In this document: piece by piece, positions 5,109 through 49,845 of the stretch | How the letters are laid out: each line of letters begins with the position of its first letter | Position numbering within the stretch: the first letter of the stretch is position 1 | Source: Prevotella sp. | GTDB lineage: Bacteria; Bacteroidota; Bacteroidia; Bacteroidales; Bacteroidaceae | Assembly: GCA_017619755.1 (NCBI GenBank) | Contig: JAFZRU010000058.1 | Coordinates: forward strand, 1-49,845 | DNA length: 49,845 bases | Reading direction: 5' to 3' | Position numbers and translations under genes: made by a program | Notes under the pieces: generated by a model | Databases searched by the model: none | Told to the model about the DNA's origin: nothing | Seen by the model: the letters and a program-made list of their open reading frames with translations, nothing else

Positions 5109-7637
5109 ATGACAAGCCAGTTTTCACCACGAGTATCCGAGATACTCTCCTATAGCCGTGAGGAAGCGACTCGCCTTGCCAGCAAATGTGTTAGCCCCGA
5201 GCACCTCCTGATGGGCATCCTCAGAGGGTGTTCCCCAGAGGTAAAAAGATTGTTTGAGCGTTTTTCGGTCAGTTTGCCCTCTATGAAGGAGGAGTTGGAA
5301 AACCGAGTGAAACAAAGAGCAGGAGGCGAAGTGCTCAACCCACGTGATTTGATGCTCGACGACCAAGCCAGCAACATTCTCAAACTCGCTGTGTTGGAAG
5401 CACGATTGCAACGCACGGACTGGGTGGACGTGCAACACTTGTTACTTGCCATGCTTCATGACAAAGTTGACAATGGCGCAAAGATTGTATTGGAACAAAA
5501 CAACATGGACTATTCGGAAACATTGAAATATTTTCAGCAAAAAGCCGGACAGACACAAGACGGCATAGGCCTCCCCGATGATGCGGAGGAGGATGACGAC
5601 ATGGGGGTGGGAGCCACCTCCGGCAACACGGCCCAAAACACGACGACACAAACACGGAAACCAGCCGGCAAGACACCTGTGCTGGACAATTTCTCCACCG
5701 ACCTCACACAAGCTGCAGCCGAGAGCAAACTCGACCCCGTGGTGGGAAGGGAAAAGGAAATGCAGAGAGTAATGGAAATTCTTTGTCGAAGAAAGAAAAA
5801 CAACCCCATTCTCATCGGTGAACCCGGCGTGGGAAAGAGCGCCATCGTGGAGGGTTTGGCACAGATGATTGTCAAGCACCGCACCTCGCCCATCTTGTTC
5901 AACAAGAGACTCGTCAGCCTCGATCTCACATCCGTCGTCGCAGGCACTAAATACCGCGGACAATTCGAGGAGCGCATCAAAGCCCTCATCAAGGAACTGG
6001 AGCAAAGCCCGGACATCATCGTCTTCATCGACGAGGTGCACACCATCATCGGCGCCGGCTCCACACCCGGTTCCATGGATGCCGCAAACATCCTCAAGCC
6101 GGCTCTCGCACGGGGAACCATACAGTGCATCGGAGCCACCACGCTTGATGAATACCGAAACAGCATCGAAAAGGACGGCGCACTCGAAAGGCGCTTCCAA
6201 AAGGTGATGGTGGAGCCCACCTCGTCCGAAGAGACCTTGCAAATACTGCAGAACATCAGAGACCGGTATGAGCAACACCACCACGTCAACTACAGCGAAG
6301 AAGCCCTGACCAGTTGCGTGAAACTCACCGAGCGTTACGTCACAGACCGCTCATTCCCCGACAAGGCCATCGATGCCATGGACGAGGTGGGCGCACGTGT
6401 ACACCTGCAACATGCACAAATACCTCCAGAGATCGCTGCCAAGGAAAAAGAAATCGAAGAGGTGAAGGTAAAAAAACGCAATGCCGTTGCCAACCAGAAC
6501 TATGAACTGGCAGCACGCTACCGCGACCAGCAGACTCAGATGGAGGAAGAGTTGCAGCGTATGAACGACGAATGGAGCAACGGCGACGACGGCAAACGCG
6601 AAGAGGTGACCGAGAGCGAGGTGGCCGACGTGGTGTCAATGATGACCGGCGTGCCGGTACAGCGTATGGCGGAGGCGGAAGGCGTCAGGTTGCGCAACAT
6701 GGGCAACGAGTTGAAAAAAGCAGTCATAGCACAGGACGCTGCCATTGAGAAAATGGTGAAGGCCATCCAGCGCAACCGCGTGGGACTCAAAGACCCGAAC
6801 CATCCCATCGGAGCATTCATGTTCTTAGGTCCCACCGGCGTGGGCAAGACCTACCTGGCCAAGAAACTCGCAGAGCAGATGTTTGGAAGCGCGGAAGACT
6901 TGATACGCGTCGACATGAACGAATATACAGAAAGTTTCAACGTCTCACGGCTGGTGGGAGCGCCTCCGGGATACGTGGGTTATGAAGAGGGCGGACAACT
7001 CACTGAAAAAGTGAGAAGACACCCCTACTCCATCGTCCTGCTCGACGAGATAGAGAAGGCACACGGCAACGTTTTCAACCTCCTGCTGCAAGTCCTCGAC
7101 GAAGGGCGACTGACCGACGGCAACGGACGTTTGGTGGATTTCCGCAACACGGTGATTATCATGACATCCAATGCGGGAACCCGTCAGCTCAAAGAGTTTG
7201 GAAGAGGCGTGGGATTCAATGCAGGAGGCACCTTGGGGCTGAGCCTCAACGAGAGCGACAAGGAGCACGCACGTTCCATCATTCAGAAGAGCCTTAGCAA
7301 GCAGTTCGCACCCGAATTCCTCAACCGCCTCGACGAAATCATCACCTTTGACCAACTCGACCTGGAGGCCATCAAGAAAATCATCGACATCGAACTTTCC
7401 GGCCTCTTCAAACGTGTGGAAGCCCTCGGCTATCATCTTGAAATCACCGATTCCGCCAAGGAATTCGTGGCGGTGAAGGGCTACGACGTACAGTTTGGCG
7501 CCCGACCGCTGAAAAGGGCCATCCAAAACCACATCGAGGACGGTCTGTGCGAAAAAATCCTCGGAGGCGAGGTGCAGCAAGGAGCAACCATCAAGATAGA
7601 CAAGGCTCCCGACAAGGAGGCTCTTGTTTTCGAATAA
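5109..7637 (+). CDS. clpC: ATP-dependent Clp protease ATP-binding subunit ClpC
   Basis: An 842-residue AAA+ unfoldase that feeds proteins to the ClpP peptidase in the cytoplasm. Domains in order: the N-terminal Clp-N double repeat (about residues 1-150); a linker rich in Asp, Thr and Gln (about 150-185); AAA-1 with Walker A GEPGVGKS (from residue 237) and Walker B IVFIDEVHT; a UVR-type coiled segment (KKRNAVANQNYELAARYRDQ), which separates ClpC from ClpA and ClpB; AAA-2 with Walker A GPTGVGKT (from residue 574) and Walker B IVLLDEIEK; and a C-terminal small domain with GARPLKRAIQ. Length and order match the family. The 85 bases upstream show no clear promoter. A hairpin follows the stop. Confidence 0.95.
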   Translation: MTSQFSPRVSEILSYSREEATRLASKCVSPEHLLMGILRGCSPEVKRLFERFSVSLPSMKEELENRVKQRAGGEVLNPRDLMLDDQASNILKLAVLEARLQRTDWVDVQHLLLAMLHDKVDNGAKIVLEQNNMDYSETLKYFQQKAGQTQDGIGLPDDAEEDDDMGVGATSGNTAQNTTTQTRKPAGKTPVLDNFSTDLTQAAAESKLDPVVGREKEMQRVMEILCRRKKNNPILIGEPGVGKSAIVEGLAQMIVKHRTSPILFNKRLVSLDLTSVVAGTKYRGQFEERIKALIKELEQSPDIIVFIDEVHTIIGAGSTPGSMDAANILKPALARGTIQCIGATTLDEYRNSIEKDGALERRFQKVMVEPTSSEETLQILQNIRDRYEQHHHVNYSEEALTSCVKLTERYVTDRSFPDKAIDAMDEVGARVHLQHAQIPPEIAAKEKEIEEVKVKKRNAVANQNYELAARYRDQQTQMEEELQRMNDEWSNGDDGKREEVTESEVADVVSMMTGVPVQRMAEAEGVRLRNMGNELKKAVIAQDAAIEKMVKAIQRNRVGLKDPNHPIGAFMFLGPTGVGKTYLAKKLAEQMFGSAEDLIRVDMNEYTESFNVSRLVGAPPGYVGYEEGGQLTEKVRRHPYSIVLLDEIEKAHGNVFNLLLQVLDEGRLTDGNGRLVDFRNTVIIMTSNAGTRQLKEFGRGVGFNAGGTLGLSLNESDKEHARSIIQKSLSKQFAPEFLNRLDEIITFDQLDLEAIKKIIDIELSGLFKRVEALGYHLEITDSAKEFVAVKGYDVQFGARPLKRAIQNHIEDGLCEKILGGEVQQGATIKIDKAPDKEALVFE

Positions 7638-48006: not shown

Positions 48007-49128
48007 TCAATTCTGCTTTTCAAATATTGCTTTTACGAGTAATTCTGTAATACCATTTTCCCTGAGTTTGCTGAAATCTTTGATTCTACGATAGCATTCA
48101 TACCAATGGTTTTCTTCAATGTCATAGAGGTTAAGATGAATCCAATCTTTCTTAATATCTATAAGAAATCCCGTAGATTCTATATATTCGTCTTCGGTTT
48201 CATCAGAAATTAAGGAAACAATAGTTCCTTTTTCTTTTGCGTCAAGAAGTATAGATTTCAACTTATTAGAATCGCTTATTATGATAATATCTTCCTTTGA
48301 GTTCTTTGATATCTCATTTGTATAAAGCAACCCAATCCTATCTAAATATGAACCACCACACCCGAAGGTCACAATTTCTTTAATATCGTATTCTTCTTGA
48401 CCACATTCTATGCCATCATCATTAATTTTTCTAAAGCATATTCTATCATTTCTTATTGATTCAACATAACCAACTATTGCCTCTTTGTTTTTAATATCTG
48501 TCGAGTTTTGCACATCAACAAGTATCTTTTTATTCATAGTTCTATGGAAGAAATCACTACGAATGTCAATTGATTCTATGTGATATTTAGCGATTTCTAT
48601 GCGATTTTCGTATAGATAAGGGTATATATTCAATTCTGGTTTGTAAACACAGATTTTCTCAATTGTGTCTATCGGGAAACATATAATACCATTATCAATA
48701 TTATAATATGGATTAAATGAGCGTAGAATAATAGTATTCTCATTATATCCTATAAGATATGCATAAAATTCGTCTTTAACAATAGTATGATATAATGCTG
48801 GAATTTCATTTTCCCATAAATAATGCAAATGTTCGCTAACTTTACTTCCAGTGATAGTTCCCTCTTTTTTTGTCGTGAACTTATCCTTGTTGTTGATTAC
48901 CTTTGTGAGATAATCAGTATTAGCACTATTTGTGTCAAAACTGACAATATCTGAAGATCCAACTTGTATAATTGTATTTTCTTCGCCCTTGTCGTCATAA
49001 GCCAAAAAATCCAATAGATTATCTTTATATTTGATAATCTTTCCATAGTAAATATTGTCGTAAGAATCATCAATTGTACGTAATCCGACAATTACATCCT
49101 TTGATAATGCTTTTATAATTTCTTTCAT
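48007..49128 (-). CDS. Hypothetical protein with four Sm/SH3-like repeats, RHS-tip neighbour (candidate immunity protein)
   Basis: 373 residues, not recognised. It is A+T-rich (Ile, Asn, Lys, Tyr), unlike its left neighbours. By eye it contains four degenerate repeats of about 60-90 residues (about 10-80, 110-180, 200-270 and 290-365), each with a strand like YYGKIIKYKDNLLDFL, FYAYLIGYNENTIILR, AIVGYVESIRNDRICF or ESTGFLIDIKKDWIHL, then a charged loop, and ending DI/DT(I)-x-x-(I/V). This spacing resembles Sm- or SH3-like small beta barrels, but the claim rests on visual alignment. It begins 24 bases after the RHS stop (or 7 bases after the stop of the alternative frame), the usual place for the immunity partner of an RHS toxin tip. 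No signal peptide, so it is cytoplasmic. Confidence 0.75.
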   Translation of the reverse strand: MKEIIKALSKDVIVGLRTIDDSYDNIYYGKIIKYKDNLLDFLAYDDKGEENTIIQVGSSDIVSFDTNSANTDYLTKVINNKDKFTTKKEGTITGSKVSEHLHYLWENEIPALYHTIVKDEFYAYLIGYNENTIILRSFNPYYNIDNGIICFPIDTIEKICVYKPELNIYPYLYENRIEIAKYHIESIDIRSDFFHRTMNKKILVDVQNSTDIKNKEAIVGYVESIRNDRICFRKINDDGIECGQEEYDIKEIVTFGCGGSYLDRIGLLYTNEISKNSKEDIIIISDSNKLKSILLDAKEKGTIVSLISDETEDEYIESTGFLIDIKKDWIHLNLYDIEENHWYECYRRIKDFSKLRENGITELLVKAIFEKQN

Positions 49129-49135
49129 ACTATTT

Positions 49136-49327
49136 CTATTTTTTGTTAATAACTATCCCCTTATTTCTATGTTCATCAGCTTTTTTCCTTTTGTTATTTT
49201 GTGGTTTGAAGTTCGGTTTTGGACCACCTCCATGTGTTTGGCCATGCATATGTCTGCCTTCTGTTTTTTTCTTACTTCCAGTACTTTGTTTCTTGGGGGT
49301 ATGTGCCTTCTGAGAAACAGTTGTCCT
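49136..49327 (-). other. Alternative reading frame for the RHS tip (likely true C-terminus if a base was lost)
   Basis: Reading -1 relative to the RHS frame from 49327 gives 63 codons to TAG at 49138-49136, with the stretch HMHGQTHGGGPKPNF and a basic, Asn/Lys-rich end (NKRKKADEHRNKG). The in-frame tail instead reads LFLRRHIPPRNKVLEVR. Upstream of 49327 the alternative frame is Trp/Arg-rich and not protein-like, so the switch must occur near GGTGGAGGACAAC (49332-49320). One missing G (GGAGGGACA) would repair it. Confidence 0.55.
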
Positions 49328-49845
49328 CCACCAGCCACAGTGCCACCTCCTGATGTAACAATTGAATATGCAGTTCCTGCGGCAACCATTAGCGCTCCTC
49401 CTGCCATTATTAAGATTCCGGTTCTTTTATAATATTCGCCTCCATTAGTTCGCATAGATTCTTTTCCATCAGGATCAATACACATCACGGGATTATTCGC
49501 ACAATATGCATACGGGCTGATGCTGTAGTACTTCTCGCACAGCGGGTCCATCCTGTCCCATTTGCCGAGGACCGGATTGTACTGCCTTGCCCCATAGTCG
49601 TAGGTGTCCAGTCCGTGCATCCTGTCAAGCTCCTTGCCGTTGACTTTCGGTCGATTTTTCTCACGCTCTGAAGAGAAAGCAAACTTTCTCTTCTCTCGCT
49701 CAATCGAAAAATTGTACTTGTAGGGCTGGATGTTCACACCCGAAATCTCCGTCGAGCCGGCGTATTGCGCACCGAACTTTTTCGCTAAGCCAAATGAGCA
49801 GAGTGAAACTTGTTTCAACTCTGCCATGGCGAGAAAAAGTCGCCG
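49153..49845 (-). CDS. RHS repeat-associated core protein, C-terminal end (5' partial), probably frameshifted tip
   Basis: The frame runs off the window. The RHS core signature DTYDYGARQYNPVLGKWDRM and YYSISPYAYCANNPVMCIDP ends at DPDG, after which the exchangeable tip begins: KESMRTNGGEYYK, a hydrophobic stretch (ILIMAGGALMVAAGTAYSIV) and a Gly-rich bend. In RHS/polymorphic toxins the core auto-cleaves and releases such a tip, the effector. Base composition turns A+T-rich just here. The core shows in-frame palindromic inserts (49639-49713 and about 49771-49843), and the tip is likely frameshifted near 49327 (see separate entry), so this gene may be inactive or misassembled. The upstream ATG at 49827 is probably internal. 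Toxin type was not recognised. Confidence 0.8.
   Translation of the reverse strand, partial: RRLFLAMAELKQVSLCSFGLAKKFGAQYAGSTEISGVNIQPYKYNFSIEREKRKFAFSSEREKNRPKVNGKELDRMHGLDTYDYGARQYNPVLGKWDRMDPLCEKYYSISPYAYCANNPVMCIDPDGKESMRTNGGEYYKRTGILIMAGGALMVAAGTAYSIVTSGGGTVAGGGQLFLRRHIPPRNKVLEVRKKQKADICMAKHMEVVQNRTSNHKITKGKKLMNIEIRG
49639..49713. repeat. In-frame palindromic insert in the RHS core
   Basis: Between YKYN and GKELDRM, which adjoin in RHS cores, lie about 24 extra residues (FSIEREKRKFAFSSEREKN and a few more). The DNA is a hairpin: GAAGAGAAAG (49670-49679), loop CAAA, CTTTCTCTTC (49684-49693), and outer arms ATTTTTC (49654-49660)/GAAAAAT (49706-49712). Confidence 0.6.
49771..49843. repeat. 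Second palindrome in the RHS core
   Basis: Inner arms GCAGAGTGAAAC (49798-49809) and GTTTCAACTCTGC (49812-49824), one bulge, with outer arms resembling GAACTTTTTCGC and GCGAGAAAAAGTCG. The same GAAAAA(G/T)TCG flavour as in the first insert suggests one repeat family. Confidence 0.5.

What the first reader, a model, noticed from the sequence alone, without database searches (positions are those of the whole stretch)
49136..49335. RHS toxin tip appears frameshifted; a better tail lies in the next frame
Near 49327 the minus-strand RHS frame turns from a Gly-rich bend into an odd tail (LFLRRHIPPRNKVLEVR). A second frame opens at the same place, reads TTVSQKAHTPKKQSTGSKKK and HMHGQTHGGGPKPNF, and stops 7 bases before the downstream gene. 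Upstream of this point the second frame is not protein-like (repeated Trp/Arg). A single missing G in GGTGGAGGACA would join the two. Either a real mutation has silenced the tip, or the base is a sequencing or assembly error; both matter when assigning toxin activity.
Basis: partly seen in the sequence, partly recalled or inferred. Interest (0 to 1): 0.8.

Follow-up and report, generated by a model that had tools for sequence, protein, structure and literature searches.

The report
Broken RHS toxin tip, immunity kept
The end of an interbacterial RHS toxin gene in a Prevotella-like genome has lost about 113 bases and with them its reading frame, while the neighbouring gene that probably protects against the toxin stays intact: most likely ordinary decay of a spare toxin cassette, although this toxin family itself looks undescribed.

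Summary
The frame switch is real, but its proposed cause is not supported. The RHS frame (49845-49153, minus strand) leaves its homologous tip at 49319/49318. The tail that continues the homology lies in another frame and stops at 49136-49138, 7 bases before the next gene. Searches gave two relatives. Against the nearer one (Prevotella sp. UBA4330) the window lacks 113 contiguous bases at the junction. The other (a buffalo-rumen Bacteroidaceae MAG) has a spacer of similar length there. So this is most likely a deletion, not a one-base error. The second frame is the selected one: dN/dS against the rumen copy is 0.11, versus about 3 in the odd tail's frame. All 3 known copies are broken, each differently. 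The downstream gene (48007-49128, probable immunity gene) is open in 3 of 3, with dN/dS about 0.2 against the rumen copy. This fits a decaying rhs-CT/immunity cassette whose immunity gene is kept. Neither protein has a significant match in the libraries searched, so the toxin's activity is unknown. No reads could be inspected, and the gene runs off the contig end, so an assembly fault is unlikely but not excluded.

The parts
49153..49845 (-). 3' end of an RHS gene, 230 codons, open at the contig end
   Evidence: window is the whole of contig C6
49465..49662 (-). RHS-associated core domain, ending ...NNPVMCIDPDGK
   Evidence: TIGR03696, E 1.3e-15, 57.7 bits against a cut-off of 32.5, residues 62-127
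49319..49476 (-). first part of the variable tip, in frame with the core
   Evidence: 152 of 158 bases identical to UBA4330
49318..49319 (-). junction where 113 bases present in UBA4330 are missing and the frame changes
49136..49318 (-). homologous tip tail, in the second frame, stop included
   Evidence: 73% protein identity to G049, 97% to UBA4330; dN/dS 0.11 against G049
49153..49318 (-). odd tail read in the RHS frame after the junction (out-of-frame reading of the same DNA)
48007..49128 (-). intact downstream gene, 373 aa, probable immunity gene
   Evidence: follows the tip in 3 of 3 loci; dN/dS 0.20 against G049 and 0.46 against UBA4330; no significant family match
49639..49713 (-). 24-codon in-frame palindromic insertion in the RHS core (exact edges ambiguous by a codon)

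Best explanation
This is the 3' end of an RHS polymorphic-toxin gene of the GTDB genus that includes Prevotella sp. UBA4330. Its tip/immunity cassette was exchanged at the conserved IDPDG boundary. After exchange, a deletion of about 113 bases inside the tip removed roughly 38 codons and shifted the frame, so the protein now ends in a meaningless tail and the toxin part is not made. The downstream immunity gene survived. The same cassette is broken in other ways in both known relatives, which suggests that in these spare cassettes the toxin is dispensable while the immunity gene is kept, probably to protect against neighbours that still deliver the toxin. Shown: the deletion relative to a relative, the selected frame, the three breakages and the open downstream gene. 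Inferred: that the downstream gene is the immunity gene, that the tip was toxic, and that protection is why the gene is kept.
For: The window lacks 113 bases at 49319/49318 against UBA4330, with 152/158 and 163/170 identity on the two sides. Distances from IDPDG to QKAH are 164 nt (window), 277 (UBA4330) and 300 (G049), so the outgroup supports loss in the window. The second frame is selected. UBA4330: the RHS frame slips at a run of A and stops before the tail. G049: the tip frame is uninterrupted, but the RHS core remnant just upstream is in another frame. The downstream gene is open in 3 of 3, dN/dS 0.19-0.20 against G049. The cassettes match at 98% over tail plus downstream gene (1273/1303), while the RHS core just upstream is only about 68% identical (derived less). 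G049/RGIG8161 carries three cassettes in a row and UBA4330 two, as in published orphan CT/immunity arrays (PMC3150448, passages).
Against: Only three copies are known, and all come from draft assemblies. The contig ends 527 bases from the junction, so whether the window's RHS gene is a full gene or a detached cassette is unknown. dN/dS of the downstream gene between window and UBA4330 is only weakly below 1 (0.46, 28 changes), and its last few residues differ in UBA4330. Selection on the second frame between window and UBA4330 rests on 4 changes. No toxicity or protection was tested, and no library names the tail a toxin.
Confidence: 0.75

Rival explanations
1. The missing segment is an assembly fault of a draft genome, and the strain carries an unbroken tip.
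Against: The breakpoints share one base, and within 40 bases either side the longest shared word is 5 bases and not at the breakpoints, so there is no repeat to collapse. Both flanks have the same distance to UBA4330 (96%), so no strain chimera is needed.
Confidence: 0.12
2. Base-calling error or single-base mutation.
For: The frame change alone would allow it.
Against: 113 bases are absent relative to UBA4330, and the more distant copy also has a longer spacer there.
Confidence: 0.03
3. The in-frame tail is a functional alternative tip reached directly in the window and by recoding elsewhere.
For: The same frame is open in all three copies, and UBA4330 has an A-run where the frame slips.
Against: In that frame dN/dS is 2.96 (window-G049) and 1.79 (UBA4330-G049), with changes concentrated at the second frame's third positions. 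Openness is expected by chance given the second-frame peptide.
Confidence: 0.04
4. The extra segment is an insertion in UBA4330, and the window shows the older state.
For: Window and UBA4330 alone cannot polarise the change.
Against: G049 has a spacer of similar length (144 nt against 133 in UBA4330 and 20 in the window, Gly-rich bend to QKAH).
Confidence: 0.05

Closest known systems
Orphan (silent) rhs-CT/rhsI and cdiA-CT/cdiI modules (Poole et al. 2011, PMC3150448; passages seen)
   Same: Variable tip after a conserved boundary motif, exchanged with the gene behind it; detached cassettes in arrays; toxin fragments not expressed or interrupted while immunity genes remain expressible.
   Different: In the window the tip has an internal deletion rather than only lacking a start or carrying an IS insertion; the tip and downstream families are not in the libraries searched; detachment cannot be judged because the contig ends.
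Orphan immunity arrays left by effector displacement, Vibrio cholerae T6SS (Kirchberger et al. 2017, PMC5361080; passages) and Serratia Rhs (PMC10539506; passages)
   Same: The immunity gene persists after loss of the effector function beside it.
   Different: Here the effector remnant is still present and merely broken; secretion route unknown.

Membership tests
rhs-CT/rhsI toxin-immunity module | RHS core domain upstream of the tip | tested here: met
   TIGR03696 at E 1.3e-15. No RHS repeat (PF05593) match on the window's contig, which holds only the last 230 codons.
rhs-CT/rhsI toxin-immunity module | Boundary motif PxxxxDPxG between core and tip (motif as given in PMC3150448) | tested here: met
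   PVMCIDPDG in P0001; followed by K where the published motif has L.
rhs-CT/rhsI toxin-immunity module | Tip and following gene exchanged as a unit at that boundary | tested here: met
   98% identity over tail and downstream gene, 152/158 in the first tip part, about 68% in the core just upstream (derived).
rhs-CT/rhsI toxin-immunity module | Gene behind the tip neutralises it | not testable with these tools
   Only position and co-occurrence in 3 of 3 loci.
rhs-CT/rhsI toxin-immunity module | Tip is a working toxin | tested here: not met
   Reading frame broken in the window; biochemical activity of any copy untested.
orphan (detached) module | No full-length RHS gene or start upstream | tested here: inconclusive
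   The window ends at the contig edge. UBA4330 has a short 268-codon RHS ORF, and G049 only a core remnant out of frame.
A catalogued toxin-tip family | Match over the curated cut-off in Pfam or NCBIfam | tested here: not met
   0 families for the tail; P0004 only SCO2400_fam at 15.1 bits against a cut-off of 55.

The most novel reading that the evidence does not exclude
The frame changes are not decay but a device: slippage at the A-run in UBA4330-type copies, or internal deletion as in the window, switches the tip between two overlapping reading frames, so that the cassette makes either a toxin tail or a harmless tail while the immunity gene stays on.
Probability: 0.04. Interest if true: 0.65.

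Novelty: new member of a known kind. Interest (0 to 1): 0.3.

Why it matters
It stops a false assignment: neither the in-frame tail nor a one-base-error story should be used to predict toxin activity for this gene. It also adds a tip/immunity pair with no significant match in the libraries searched, in which the toxin is broken in 3 of 3 known copies while the neighbouring gene stays open. That is a small, testable example of immunity genes outliving their toxins in rumen-type Bacteroidales.

Tried and rejected
Family searches: no significant Pfam, NCBIfam, PADLOC or PHROGs family for the tail or the downstream gene (the UBA4330 tail was not scanned). Sub-threshold rows dropped: Pept_S41_N 0.28, Npun_R1517 0.22, SCO2400_fam 0.026. 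PDB sequences: 0 for the tail; 2 chance rows at E 0.41 for the downstream gene.

Structures: both models were poor (mean pLDDT 43.9 and 42.9), so no fold search was run.

I suspected four repeats in the downstream protein; a shuffle test gave no support (best pair reached by 31 of 500 shuffles).

Wider searches: tail protein in 3 of 201 family genomes (own, G049, and a weak G036 row at E 0.009 dropped as chance). Downstream gene in 2 of 150 genus genomes, 3 of 399 family genomes (G003 a partial match at 2.2e-8, not beside an RHS frame in the ORF list) and 2 of 395 phylum genomes (G842 weak at 8.9e-4, not followed beyond a glance at its first bases). Tail profile in 1 of 395 phylum genomes, own only. 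UBA4330 tip DNA in 7 of 398 genus genomes: own, G227, and five short matches of 50 bases or fewer; four of these lie at the start of an ORF that I recognise from memory as ATP synthase alpha, the fifth in another ORF; all five rejected. Plasmids: none for the rumen tail or the downstream protein. Viral contigs: 29 candidate stretches, none confirmed. Genome contigs: 98 candidate stretches, 2 confirmed. The pattern stage needs short exact peptide matches, so distant relatives can be missed.

Papers: passages only of PMC3150448, PMC5361080 and PMC10539506; all others as search listings.

Full report
What the sequence shows. The window is the whole of contig C6 of its genome, and the contig ends at 49845 inside an RHS gene. 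On the minus strand the RHS frame runs from 49845 to a stop at 49153. Its RHS core is recognised by TIGR03696 (E 1.3e-15) and ends at NNPVMCIDPDGK. The tip then reads through a Gly-rich bend to GGGQ and turns into LFLRRHIPPRNKVLEVR... A second frame over the same DNA reads VSQKAHTPKKQSTGSKKKTEGRHMHGQTHGGGPKPNFKPQNNKRKKADEHRNKGIVINKK and stops at 49136-49138, 7 bases before the ATG of the next gene at 49128. Upstream of the junction the second frame has 4 stops in 49 codons.

Relatives. A scan of 84,980 species genomes gave 98 candidate stretches and 2 confirmed loci: Prevotella sp. UBA4330 (DGTS01000029.1, L017) and a Bacteroidaceae MAG from water-buffalo rumen (RGIG8161, JAFZWM010000018.1, L018). 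Wider sampling added no good relative of the tail: 3 of 201 family genomes including own, G049 and one chance row, and 1 of 395 phylum genomes, own only.

Cause of the frame change. Against UBA4330 the DNA is 152/158 identical from IDPDG to 49319 and 163/170 identical from 49318 on. Between these two blocks UBA4330 has 113 further bases (L017 5888-6000). The distance from IDPDG to the QKAH motif is 164 nt in the window, 277 in UBA4330 and 300 in G049. The outgroup therefore supports loss in the window's lineage. The two breakpoints share one base, and no word longer than 5 bases is shared within 40 bases of them. This argues against a repeat-driven assembly collapse, but reads were not available. 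A one-base error does not explain the data.

Which frame is real. Between window and G049 the tail has dN/dS 0.11 in the second frame, 2.96 in the in-frame odd tail and 0.71 in the third frame. For UBA4330 against G049 the values are 0.18, 1.79 and 0.63. Of 32 differences, 19 fall at third positions of the second frame (p = 0.002). Between window and UBA4330 there are only 4 changes in the stretch compared (3 synonymous in the second frame), too few to judge. The odd frame is open in all three copies, but that is expected by chance: 19-24% (window) and 64-78% (G049) of random synonymous recodings of the second-frame peptide leave it open.

All three copies are broken. Window: deletion and frame change. 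UBA4330: the RHS frame stops after ...ESIKKNRFH at 5990, at a run of A, before the tail, which lies in another frame. G049: the tip is uninterrupted, but the remnant of RHS core just upstream is read in another frame. The gene behind the tip is open in 3 of 3 (P0003, L017 6192-7343, P0007), with dN/dS 0.198 (window-G049), 0.194 (UBA4330-G049) and 0.457 (window-UBA4330, 28 changes). In UBA4330 its last residues differ.

Context. UBA4330 carries two short RHS cassettes, at L017 5184-5990 and 7434-8000, between tRNA-Asp and tRNA-Arg genes. RGIG8161 carries three cassettes in a row, at L018 1025-2520, 2528-4140 and 4359-5761. Tail plus downstream gene are 98% identical between window and UBA4330 (1273/1303). 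The RHS core just upstream of IDPDG is only about 68% identical, a figure I derive by subtracting the 152/158 from the 267/326 HSP, whose end was cut from the display. This is the cassette exchange described for rhs and cdi loci (PMC3150448, passages seen).

Mechanism. Most likely the cassette once encoded a small basic toxin tip (17 Lys/Arg and 5 His against 3 Asp/Glu in 60 residues) and its immunity protein (66 Asp/Glu against 47 Lys/Arg). I guess that it acts on nucleic acid, but only from charge; no family match and no usable model supports a named activity. The toxin has been lost by deletion, and the immunity gene remains, as in orphan immunity genes shown elsewhere to protect against competitors (PMC10539506, passages). 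That the downstream gene is the immunity gene rests on position and co-occurrence only.

Verdict. The cause is a deletion of about 113 bases in a decaying toxin cassette, a known kind of event in an apparently uncatalogued tip family. Interest is modest.

Noticed in passing
window 49639-49713 (minus strand): A palindromic insertion of 24 codons sits in frame in the RHS core, between YKYN and GKELD. Its family (ends GAGCGAGAG...GAGCGTGAG, stems that differ in sequence but stay self-complementary) has 8 places in 5 of 50 genomes, with 0 control matches in the rows shown; 4 of the 8 lie in frame in a same-sense ORF, one of them another RHS gene in a different family (L041). It resembles in-frame palindromic elements known from Rickettsia (recalled).
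   Followed up: partly
window 49780-49845: The contig breaks in a second palindromic repeat found at 5 other places of the same genome at 79-91% identity.
   Followed up: partly
L017 5960-5990: In UBA4330 the RHS frame is lost at a run of A just before the tail; a sequencing error, real slippage or length variation could each explain it.
   Followed up: partly
L018 2528-5761: Two further short RHS cassettes follow in the buffalo-rumen MAG; one tip has a sub-threshold Peptidase_M78 match (17 bits against a cut-off of 22).
   Followed up: no
L009 (G000 contig C28): The same genome has another RHS gene end whose tip carries a GHELIH motif, metallopeptidase-like by recall.
   Followed up: no
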